From a bacterium (lineage in GTDB: Bacteria > Elusimicrobiota > Elusimicrobia > UBA1565 > UBA9628): a stretch of DNA of 64,000 nucleotides. The stretch is taken from NCBI GenBank assembly GCA_021822495.1, contig JAKAQO010000006.1, positions 1 to 64,000 of the forward strand, in the 5' to 3' direction. Numbering within the stretch: position 1 is the first letter of the stretch; each line of letters opens with the position of its first letter. Position numbers and translations under genes: made by a program. The notes beneath the pieces were generated by a model, which had not been told where the DNA came from, ran no database searches, and saw only the letters and a list, made by a program, of their open reading frames with translations. This document shows positions 16,986 to 51,357 of this stretch, in pieces.

Positions 16986-17008
16986 AAAAAAGGGACTGTC
17001 CCCTTTTT
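16986..17008. repeat. GGGGAC(A/T)GTCCCC palindrome with A/T-run flanks
   Basis: AAAAAAGGGACTGTCCCC followed by TTTTT; one G is missing in the left arm. It lies 22 bases after the DUF4143 ATPase stop and can fold as a terminator with a T-run. It is the one long copy not placed between convergent genes. Confidence 0.8.
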
Positions 17009-25976: not shown

Positions 25977-26000
25977 AAAAGGGGACTGTCCCCTTTTTTA
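25974..26000. repeat. Perfect 27-bp GGGGACTGTCCCC palindrome between convergent genes
   Basis: TAAAAAAGGGGAC, T, then GTCCCC and TTTTTTA: every base pairs across the centre. It serves as a bidirectional terminator. The first three bases are the stop codon of the GDT1-type gene; the last three, read on the other strand, are the stop codon of the convergent gene at 25998-26393. Confidence 0.9.
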
Positions 26001-37070: not shown

Positions 37071-37092
37071 AAGGGGACAGTCCCCTTTTATT
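37066..37092. repeat. Perfect 27-bp GGGGACAGTCCCC palindrome between convergent genes
   Basis: AATAAAAGGGGAC, A, GTCCCCTTTTATT: all pairs match. It provides the ispH stop TAA (37068-37070) and, on the other strand, two of three bases of the orn stop (37091-37093). It acts as a terminator for both. Confidence 0.9.
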
Positions 37093-46161: not shown

Positions 46162-47298
46162 GTGAAAAAACGACTCTTTCTAATCCTTGCTATCGCCTTC
46201 TTGATCGCTTTCTATATCGGCGTTAATTTGGCGGAAATCTCTCCGGCTCATCTGTGGGAGATGATGGGAATTTCATTTTTCATCGTTTTTTTGTTTATCG
46301 GTTGGCAATGGAGCTACCGCTTGTCTTCTTTTTCCCAGGGCCCCTGGTCCTTGGCTCTTGCGTGGACGGCCAATATTGGTATCGGGGTTTGGGTGACCTT
46401 TCTTTTTTTTGCCGCGCTTAAAGACGCGGTTATTTTGGCGCTTCCGAGAAGATTTTTACCCCTCATTCCTTGGCCGAGCGTTATTTTAGGGATGCTTCTC
46501 ATTTCGGTTGTCTTTGCCGCCATCGGCCTTTGGCAGGCCTTGGCGGGGCCTTTCATTCGGCGCGTGTCAGTTCCCATTCAAGGTTTGCCCAAATCTTTAG
46601 AAGGGCTTAAAATTTTGCAAATTAGCGACTTGCATATCGGTCCAACCATTCGAAAACTCTATGTGGAAAAAACCGTTGAACGGGCTCTAAGTCTCAATCC
46701 TGACTTAATCGCCCTGACCGGCGATATTTTTGACGGGACTTTCGAGGTTTTGGCGCCTCACCTGGAACCCCTGCGCCGTTTAAAAGCCCCCTTGGGCCTT
46801 TTTTATGTGACGGGAAACCATGAATATTTTTGGGGCGCTCGGATGTGGACTCAAAAAGCCGTTGAATATGGTCTGACGCCTTTAAACAATGAAAATCGCG
46901 TCCTGACTTTTAAAGGCGAAAAATTTCTCATTGCGGGAATCCCTGATGAAATGAGCCGTTTTTTTGATAAGGACAATAATCCCGATTGCGCCAAGGCCGC
47001 CAAAACACAAGACGGGGAACTGTTTAAAATATTGCTGGCCCATCGCCCCGGGGTTTATGCCGAGGCCGCGGCTGCGGGGTTTCATCTTCAGTTGTCGGGC
47101 CATACGCATGGCGGCCAATTTTTTCCCTGGAGTCTCATGATTGGCTTTTTTCATCGCTTTTACCGGGGGCTCAACTGCTACAAAAATTTATGGATTTACG
47201 TCAGCCCTGGAACCGGCTATTGGGGGCCGGCCCAGCGCTTGGCTGTTCCCGCTGAAATCACCCTTTTGACGCTAAAAGCCCAAGATTCTAAGAGCTAA
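46162..47298 (+). CDS. Membrane metallophosphoesterase
   Basis: A 378-residue protein with GTG start. Four hydrophobic segments in the first 130 residues anchor it. The phosphoesterase domain has DLHIGP, GDIFDG, GNHEY and GHTHGGQ, with metal ligands in the usual order. It resembles YkuE/YaeI-type phosphodiesterases. Its substrate is unclear. The stop codon's last base is the first base of the 268-base inverted-repeat element. Confidence 0.9.
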   Translation: MKKRLFLILAIAFLIAFYIGVNLAEISPAHLWEMMGISFFIVFLFIGWQWSYRLSSFSQGPWSLALAWTANIGIGVWVTFLFFAALKDAVILALPRRFLPLIPWPSVILGMLLISVVFAAIGLWQALAGPFIRRVSVPIQGLPKSLEGLKILQISDLHIGPTIRKLYVEKTVERALSLNPDLIALTGDIFDGTFEVLAPHLEPLRRLKAPLGLFYVTGNHEYFWGARMWTQKAVEYGLTPLNNENRVLTFKGEKFLIAGIPDEMSRFFDKDNNPDCAKAAKTQDGELFKILLAHRPGVYAEAAAAGFHLQLSGHTHGGQFFPWSLMIGFFHRFYRGLNCYKNLWIYVSPGTGYWGPAQRLAVPAEITLLTLKAQDSKS

Positions 47299-47565
47299 GG
47301 ACTCTTGACAAAATAATATGGACATTTGGCTAAGCCGATTTTGGAGCGAAACAAGGAGAGAGGAGCGCGCATGGCTTAAGCCATGTAAGCGACGAACGAC
47401 GCGGTTGCAGCCCAAAAGCGGCTCAGCCCCTTCGGGGGAGGCCCATCTTCGGCCCATTTCTTCGTTGCTCGGCGCTTACATAACTCGTTATGCTCGCTTC
47501 TCGCGCCTCGAATTGGGCTCGAACCTGGGCCTCCCAAATGTCCATATTATTTCGTCACGAGTCCT
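47298..47565. mobile_element. 268-bp MITE-like element with 32-bp terminal inverted repeats
   Basis: Left end (47298-47329) begins AGGACTC and ends GGACATTTGG; right end (47534-47565), read in reverse, is the same except at two of 32 positions. Inside are small hairpins: CATGGCTTAAGCCATG (47370-47385), CATAACTCGTTATG (47479-47492), and GCCCCTTCGGGG in the centre. The two arms pair again around ATGTAAGCG, and the hairpins sit at equivalent places in the arms but with different stem sequences. No coding frame is convincing. It lies between the phosphoesterase and the amine oxidase. No certain target-site duplication is seen. Confidence 0.72.
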
Positions 47566-47571
47566 AAAGAC

Positions 47572-48843
47572 ATGACACAAAAAAAAGATTGCAAGGCGCT
47601 TATTATCGGCGCCGGAGCGGCGGGGCTTGCGGCGGCAGAGGCCTTAACGCGGGCGGGAAAGAGATGCGTGATTCTTGAAGCGCGAAATCGCATTGGCGGG
47701 CGAATTTGGACTGTGAAGGGTCCGGATCAGTCTCCGATTGAATTGGGCGCGGAGTTTATCCACGGTCGTCCCCGCGTGACTTGGGATATCCTCAAGCGTT
47801 TCAGGATCAAGGCTATTCCGGTCTCGGGGGTTCGCTGGCGCAAGGGCGAAGAGGGTTTGAAACGAGATTCCAACTCTTGGGGAAGTCTTTCCAAAGTTTT
47901 CTCGCGGCTTAAATCCACGAGGAAAGACCGTTCTTTTCTCGATGCTTTGGAGAAAATGAAACTTTCTCCCGCATCCAAAGAGATGGCCGAGCGTTTTGTG
48001 AGAAGTTATCACGCCGCGGACACTCGTAAAATCAGCGTCAACGATCTCGTATTTCAACAGGAAGTATCCGGAGAATCGGGTATGCAGGGGTACCGCATTC
48101 CGCAAGGTTACGGGTCTTTGATCAAAAATTTGGCGGCAGCCTTGCCTCCCGGTTCAATTCAGTTGAATCAAGCCGTGCGGGAAATTCGCTGGTCTCGAAA
48201 TAAGGTGGAGGTTGTCACTCAAAAATCGCGCTTCAAGGCCGAGCGCGTCTTGGTGACCGTGCCGCTAGGGGTTCTAAAATATCCCGGGGCCTTTGTTTTC
48301 TATCCCGCCTTGAAAGCAAAAGAAGCGGCCTTGAAAAAACTGGAGATGGGACTGGCGGCTAGAGTTTCTTTCTTTTTTCGGGAGCCTTTCTGGCAAAAAG
48401 GGGGGAGAAAAAATCTTTCCGGCTTTTTTCAATTAGAGAAGACGGCAATTCCGGTTTGGTGGACCGGACTCTTTAAGGATTCTCCGGTCTTAACTGGTTG
48501 GCTGGGTGGGCCGGAGGTTCAAAAACTGGGGGCCCCGAAGCTTTTTACTCGCCGAGGGCTTGAGAGTTTAAGCGGTCTTTTTTATTTTGATCAAAAATTC
48601 TTGAAATCAAAACTCCTCCGGACTTATTTTCACGACTGGAGTTCCGACCCTTTTTCCCGCGGGGCTTACAGTTACTGTGGAGTGGGTGGAATGCCGGCTC
48701 GAAAAGAGCTTGCGCGTCCCGTTGATAAGACCTTGTTTTTTGCCGGAGAAGCAACCGATGATTCCGGTGAGGCCTCGACCGTGGCCGGCGCTTTTTCAAG
48801 CGGTCTTCGCGCCGCTGAAGAAATCATCTCATCTTTAATTTAG
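47572..48843 (+). CDS. FAD-dependent amine oxidase (monoamine oxidase-like)
   Basis: A 423-residue flavoprotein. The Rossmann FAD-binding motif is IGAGAAGLAAAEAL (11-24) followed by LEARNRIGGRIW. The C-terminal FAD segment is FFAGEATDDSGEASTVAGAFSSGLRAAEEI. The family oxidises amines or related substrates and makes hydrogen peroxide. The substrate is unknown. It starts six bases after the inverted-repeat element; no good ribosome site is visible, so it may read from a promoter within or before the element. The initiator tRNA follows. Confidence 0.9.
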   Translation: MTQKKDCKALIIGAGAAGLAAAEALTRAGKRCVILEARNRIGGRIWTVKGPDQSPIELGAEFIHGRPRVTWDILKRFRIKAIPVSGVRWRKGEEGLKRDSNSWGSLSKVFSRLKSTRKDRSFLDALEKMKLSPASKEMAERFVRSYHAADTRKISVNDLVFQQEVSGESGMQGYRIPQGYGSLIKNLAAALPPGSIQLNQAVREIRWSRNKVEVVTQKSRFKAERVLVTVPLGVLKYPGAFVFYPALKAKEAALKKLEMGLAARVSFFFREPFWQKGGRKNLSGFFQLEKTAIPVWWTGLFKDSPVLTGWLGGPEVQKLGAPKLFTRRGLESLSGLFYFDQKFLKSKLLRTYFHDWSSDPFSRGAYSYCGVGGMPARKELARPVDKTLFFAGEATDDSGEASTVAGAFSSGLRAAEEIISSLI

Positions 48844-51295: not shown

Positions 51296-51318
51296 AAAAA
51301 GGGGACAGTCCCCTTTTT
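51296..51318. repeat. GGGGACAGTCCCC palindrome (copy 1 of an inverted pair)
   Basis: AAAAAGGGGACAGTCCCC then TTTTT, perfect apart from the centre base. Placed three bases after the feoB stop. The centre base is A. Confidence 0.88.
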
Positions 51319-51330
51319 GGCTAAGGTTAT

Positions 51331-51357
51331 AAAGAAAGGGGACTGTCCCCTTTTCTT
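51331..51357. repeat. GGGGACTGTCCCC palindrome (copy 2 of an inverted pair)
   Basis: AAAGAAAGGGGACTGTCCCC then TTTTCTT; the centre base is T, so it is inverted relative to copy 1 about 13 bases away. It ends inside the stop codon of the convergent ankyrin-caspase gene. Confidence 0.85.

What the first reader, a model, noticed from the sequence alone, without database searches (positions are those of the whole stretch)
47298..47565. 268-bp non-coding element with 32-bp inverted ends and repeated hairpins in each arm
Ends match at 30 of 32 positions. The arms contain hairpins at the same place with different stem sequences (CATGGCTTAAGCCATG versus CATAACTCGTTATG), followed by the same ATGTAAGCG. 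Preserved structure with changed sequence suggests selection for pairing, either a MITE recognised by an unseen transposase or a structured RNA.
Basis: partly seen in the sequence, partly recalled or inferred. Interest (0 to 1): 0.66.

Follow-up and report, generated by a model that had tools for sequence, protein, structure and literature searches.

The report
Palindromic jumping DNA with conserved core
This is a small gene-less jumping DNA element that recently landed between two genes of an uncultured Elusimicrobiota bacterium; it belongs to a large, apparently undescribed family whose folded core is kept by matched mutations and is shared by elements with quite different ends, which is unusual for such elements.

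Summary
In detail: 47298-47565 has 30/32 inverted ends, the only such pair in the window, and folds far better than shuffles. It is a non-autonomous mobile DNA element (MITE class). A 98% copy lies elsewhere in the genome. All four congeners checked have the same gene pair without it. Its ends are flanked by a 3-bp TAA duplication, and 34 of 45 related copies have exact TAA or TTA duplications. The family occurs in 62 of 247 Elusimicrobiota genomes and in Omnitrophota, with faint relatives in Delta- and Zetaproteobacteria. Covariation is strong: 47 of 56 pairs change on both sides (0/500 shuffles). G-T pairs are no commoner than A-C, so the pairing is most likely kept at DNA level; a structured RNA is not supported. 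The two halves are homologous arms in inverted orientation. Unusually, the core is better conserved than the ends, and the same core sits between ends with different target duplications (TWA or TA), even within one genome. For one TA-type subfamily, an IS630-like element in the same genome has matching ends. The mobiliser of the TWA class, the window's own, was not found. New variant of a known kind; function of the core unproven.

The parts
47299..47564 (.). the mobile element proper (266 bp)
   Evidence: bounded by TAA duplications; absent from four congeners; 98% copy elsewhere
47296..47298 (+). left copy of the TAA target duplication; also the stop codon of the upstream gene
   Evidence: family-wide rule 34/45
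47565..47567 (+). right copy of the TAA target duplication
47298..47329 (+). left terminal inverted repeat (32 bp; includes 1 base of the duplication)
47534..47565 (-). right terminal inverted repeat (30/32 to the left one)
47329..47424 (+). left arm: palindromic module with conserved non-paired positions
   Evidence: model R1, 101.6 bits; covariation
47370..47385 (+). inner hairpin of the left arm CATGGCTTAAGCCATG
   Evidence: pairs covary in the family (helices 6 and 7)
47440..47534 (-). right arm: inverted homologue of the left arm
   Evidence: model R1 on the - strand, 56.2 bits, E = 1.4e-10
47479..47492 (-). inner hairpin of the right arm CATAACTCGTTATG
   Evidence: one search shows different stems in relatives
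46162..47298 (+). upstream gene: calcineurin-like metallophosphoesterase; its stop codon is the target site
   Evidence: Pfam PF00149; orthologues next to the empty sites
47572..48843 (+). downstream gene: flavin amine oxidoreductase
   Evidence: Pfam PF01593; orthologues next to the empty sites

Best explanation
A non-autonomous, palindromic mobile DNA element of the MITE class, moved in trans by a DDE-type transposase that cuts at TWA with a 3-bp stagger. Shown: copies at unrelated sites, empty sites in relatives, exact TWA duplications, matched ends. Inferred: the enzyme, most likely IS5/PIF-like from the TWA duplication and G-rich ends, but not found. Between the ends lie two homologous arms in inverted orientation, each a hairpin-rich module. 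The pairing is kept by compensatory changes at DNA level, and certain sequence positions are conserved across two phyla. Inferred: the arms are recognised as DNA, folded (cruciform or single-stranded hairpin) or double-stranded, by a protein that helps mobilisation or maintenance, because the same core recurs between ends that duplicate different targets.
For: 98% identical full copy at C2:21271-21538 with unrelated flanks, the same two mismatches between its ends, and its own TAA duplication. Four congeners carry the gene pair with only a short gap and no element. 19 TAA/TAA and 15 TTA/TTA of 45 independent insertions, none TAA/TTA, and 0-2 per offset in outward-shifted controls. Copies in 19 of 57 relatives by blastn, and in 62 of 247 Elusimicrobiota genomes with the arm model, often 16 or more (the scoring cap). 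Covariation: 94.8% of cells paired, 47 of 56 pairs with both-side changes, score 0.537 vs 0.160 shuffled and 0.08 or less when slid. DNA-level pairing: 47 G-T vs 63 A-C cells against 16 vs 0 in tRNA stems, Fisher p = 1e-5. Core better conserved than ends: 0.75-0.81 vs 0.61-0.64 mean column identity. Several end classes with the same core in one genome, G102.
Against: No transposase with these ends was found in 14 element-bearing genomes. IS4/IS5-type DDE_Tnp_1 genes are missing from ten of 16 element-bearing genomes, including the window's own and one closed genome, though IS copies are easily lost from metagenome assemblies. Quasi-palindrome correction could make compensatory changes without selection. 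The alignment set was chosen by similarity to the window and by a left-arm pattern, which inflates left-arm conservation (not that of the right arm).
Confidence: 0.8

Rival explanations
1. A structured non-coding RNA or cis-regulatory RNA dispersed in intergenic regions, with pairing selected in the transcript.
For: Strong fold and strong covariation. A Geobacter paper called a palindromic intergenic family with a similar central palindrome 'short RNA elements' (PMC2700814).
Against: G-T is not favoured over A-C in ends or left arm, nor in the right arm once the invariant T-G column pair is set aside. tRNA control 16 vs 0. No Rfam match. Perfect ends, target duplications and empty sites need transposition.
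Confidence: 0.08
2. A REPIN-like element moved by a single-copy RAYT (Y1/HUH) transposase.
For: Inverted hairpin modules resemble REPINs. Y1_Tnp genes occur in 116 of 247 genomes of the phylum, including the window's own.
Against: RAYT/IS200-type movement leaves no target duplication (established knowledge), yet TWA duplications are exact. Y1_Tnp was not found in element-rich G003. The RAYT of the window's genome is flanked by its own unrelated REPs, GGGGACWGTCCCC. Only one of the Y1 loci scanned has an arm-model hit nearby.
Confidence: 0.04
3. The covariation is a by-product of mutation (template-switch correction of quasi-palindromes) or of repeated capture of new matched ends, not selection on folding.
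For: Pairs are kept with no tolerance for G-T, as correction would give. All long palindromic parts behave alike.
Against: Specific mismatched and unpaired positions stay nearly invariant across two phyla instead of being corrected. The mismatches between the window's two ends are kept unchanged in its 98% copy.
Confidence: 0.3
4. An IS630/Tc1-type MITE like its sister class with TA-flanked ends.
For: In G274 an IS630 element has ends matching 18 of the outer 22 positions of the TA-class element in the same genome, with none as good in 800 kb of another Omnitrophota genome. The window's genome has one DDE_3 gene.
Against: The window's class duplicates TWA, 3 bp, not TA. DDE_3 was not found in several genomes rich in this class, e.g. 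G005 and G006. The DDE_3 locus of the window's genome lacks these ends.
Confidence: 0.08

Closest known systems
Bacterial MITEs such as Chunjie of Geobacter uraniireducens (reviewed in PMC10969869)
   Same: Short, non-coding, matched inverted ends, direct repeats, many intergenic copies (Chunjie 178-235 bp), derivatives lacking parts
   Different: No described family was matched. Here the core is better conserved than the ends, spans two phyla, occurs with several end classes and covaries strongly. The Chunjie sequence could not be read here, so kinship with it is untested.
Tourist / PIF-Harbinger and IS5-superfamily elements
   Same: 3-bp TWA target duplication and G-rich termini
   Different: No DDE_Tnp_1 gene in the window's genome and most element-rich relatives; no autonomous element with these ends found; DDE_Tnp_4 not searched
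REP/REPIN-RAYT systems
   Same: Inverted hairpin modules, many copies
   Different: Target duplications present; the RAYT of this genome has its own REPs
24-copy palindromic 'short RNA element' family of Geobacter metallireducens (PMC2700814)
   Same: Multicopy, intergenic; central palindrome GRCGTAGCGCTGCTACGCC resembles the arm hairpin of Omnitrophota copies (GGCGTAGC...GCTACGCC)
   Different: Only the palindrome is printed in the main text, so homology is a lead, not tested. Interpreted there as RNA.
IS630-family element of the Omnitrophota genome G274 (locus L494)
   Same: Ends match the TA-class sister elements of the same genome at 18/22 positions; TA target
   Different: Different target rule from the window's class

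Membership tests
MITE (non-autonomous TIR element) | short, no coding capacity, matched terminal inverted repeats | tested here: met
   266 bp, 30/32 ends; no Pfam match
MITE (non-autonomous TIR element) | target site duplication | tested here: met
   TAA/TAA at the site; 34/45 in the family
MITE (non-autonomous TIR element) | several copies and empty sites | tested here: met
MITE (non-autonomous TIR element) | autonomous partner with the same ends | tested here: inconclusive
   none found for the TWA class; candidate for a TA-class subfamily; metagenome assemblies lose IS copies
Tourist / PIF-Harbinger / IS5-like | 3-bp TWA duplication | tested here: met
Tourist / PIF-Harbinger / IS5-like | related DDE transposase with these ends | tested here: inconclusive
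   PF01609 absent from 10 of 16 element-bearing genomes, and loci that have it lack these ends; PF13359 not searched
REPIN-RAYT | no target duplication | tested here: not met
REPIN-RAYT | RAYT gene flanked by the same repeat | tested here: not met
IS630-derived MITE | TA duplication | tested here: not met
   window class is TWA; sister class has TA at both ends (TA was part of the search pattern there)
Known structured RNA (Rfam) | match to a covariance model | tested here: not met
   no match at E <= 1
Known structured RNA (Rfam) | G-U pairs tolerated over A-C | tested here: not met

The most novel reading that the evidence does not exclude
The core is an independently selected, folded DNA module that has been combined with the ends of several unrelated transposition systems (TWA, TA, perhaps a 4-bp type) across at least two phyla: a passenger structure that works with different transposases, or a second recognition code read as folded DNA by a host protein.
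Probability: 0.35. Interest if true: 0.75.

Novelty: new variant of a known kind. Interest (0 to 1): 0.5.

Why it matters
MITEs are usually defined by conserved ends around an arbitrary core. Here the core is the conserved, covarying part and the ends change. If the core is selected, it points to a DNA structure that several transposases or a common host protein can use. It also warns that strong covariation in intergenic repeats is not by itself evidence for an RNA: the G-T versus A-C count separates the two. The element is also a usable marker of recent mobility in Elusimicrobiota and Omnitrophota, whose genomes are known mostly from metagenomes.

Tried and rejected
Autonomous partner by end pairs in 14 genomes: only 50-330-bp pairs and contig-end breaks. 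DDE_Tnp_1 loci lack the ends. RAYT rejected. DDE_3: a partner-like element only for a TA-class subfamily. Closed genome of Ca. Velamenicoccus: 800 kb read, no arm hits there, so the rest was not fetched. Composite element suspected at G156:C101 turned out to be two separate copies. Phages, plasmids, viral contigs: none. A weak arm-model hit at window 33558 is chance. One search's pattern was too loose to use. Literature searches found no description of the family.

Full report
Observation. The 32-bp ends pair at 30 positions, and no other pair in the 64-kb window comes near. The stretch folds at z = -8.6 as RNA and -8.8 as DNA. A covariance model of the left arm finds the right arm on the other strand at E = 1.4e-10. 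The element is therefore two homologous arms in inverted orientation inside matched ends.

Mobility. The genome (2.2 Mb, 15 contigs) holds a 98% copy at C2:21271-21538 with unrelated flanks, an 83% core, a 68% copy and several end-only or deleted forms. In four congeners the same gene pair (metallophosphoesterase and amine oxidoreductase) is present with only a short gap. The element is flanked by TAA on both sides, and the left copy is the stop codon of the upstream gene. Over 45 independent insertions of this end class the flanking triplets are TAA/TAA 19 times and TTA/TTA 15 times, never TAA/TTA. Shifted controls give 0-2 each. This is a 3-bp TWA target duplication.

Taxonomic spread. 19 of 57 relatives match by blastn, and 62 of 247 Elusimicrobiota genomes match the arm model (16 is the scoring cap per genome). 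Weak but significant relatives lie in a Deltaproteobacterium and a Zetaproteobacterium, the former with quite different ends, GGGCACCTCTAAAAACT. No viral, phage or plasmid copy was found.

Structure. On 51 elements RNAalifold gives 56 pairs, of which 47 have changes on both sides. Counted on the given structure, 94.8% of cells pair, and every measure exceeds all 500 shuffles and all slid versions. The structure was derived from the same alignment, so the slid control flatters it; the many different pair types do not depend on that. Some copies replace the purine-rich flanks of the arm hairpin by plain complementary stems (L103, L104, L107). G-T and A-C cells number 47 and 63. Acceptor stems of 42 tRNAs from the fetched DNA give 16 and 0, although tRNA calling itself disfavours A-C. 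Pairing is therefore most likely maintained in DNA. Whether by selection on the fold or by correction of quasi-palindromes is open. Near-invariant unpaired positions speak for selection, and the two end mismatches kept unchanged in the 98% copy speak against routine correction.

Ends against core. Mean column identity is 0.61-0.64 in the ends and 0.75-0.81 in the arms. Other end classes carry the same core: TACTGAG...CTCAGTA flanked by TA and CTAGTGTA. One genome, G102, holds three such classes. Single-arm elements of 161-185 bp also exist. This is the unusual point: in ordinary MITEs the ends are the constrained part.

Mobiliser. End pairs in 14 genomes show no gene-bearing element. DDE_Tnp_1 is absent from the window's genome and nine more of 16 genomes, and where present it lacks these ends. 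RAYT genes exist, but in the window's genome they sit with their own REPs. DDE_3 was not found in several element-rich genomes. In the Omnitrophota genome G274 an IS630 element (L494) has ends matching the TA-class elements of that genome at 18 of 22 outer positions, in register with the TA; no position in 800 kb of another Omnitrophota genome does as well. The TA class is thus plausibly IS630-mobilised. The TWA class needs another enzyme, IS5/PIF-like by its duplication, which remains unfound. Absence from metagenome assemblies is weak evidence.

Known relatives. Rfam has no match. The prokaryotic MITE review (PMC10969869) describes comparable elements, e.g. Chunjie, whose own paper is not held. 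A Geobacter metallireducens family with a similar central palindrome was called short RNA elements (PMC2700814); kinship is a lead only.

Verdict. Ordinary in being a MITE, and recently mobile. Unusual in its conserved, covarying DNA core shared across end classes and phyla. A new variant of a known kind.

Noticed in passing
window 16989-17005, 25979-25995, 37071-37087, 51299-51315, 51336-51352: Five REP palindromes AAGGGGACWGTCCCCTT, none expected by chance; the same REPs surround the Y1_Tnp (RAYT) gene of this genome at L384:3701-4375.
   Followed up: partly
G000:C7:93077-93124 (L005) and G006:C22:40089-40136: 48-bp palindromes made of the two element ends alone, without the core; probably deletion products of the palindrome.
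   Followed up: no
L443, L448, L453 (Deltaproteobacterium G272): About 130-140-bp elements GGGGACCTCTAAAAACTGCC... whose interior (GATGCAAGGCGC...GTACGCC...GCAACGCCGCAGATGGGC) looks like the right arm alone.
   Followed up: partly
L185 / L440: Single-arm Deltaproteobacterial element apparently flanked by a 4-bp repeat, ATCA/TGAT; one example only.
   Followed up: no
window 47296-47298: The insertion used the TAA stop codon of the upstream gene as target, so the reading frame is untouched although a probable gene pair is split.
   Followed up: yes
L494:892-2045: IS630-like element in Omnitrophota genome G274; the DDE region is split over two frames (ORFs 920-1567 and 1591-2010), perhaps a frameshift.
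   Followed up: no
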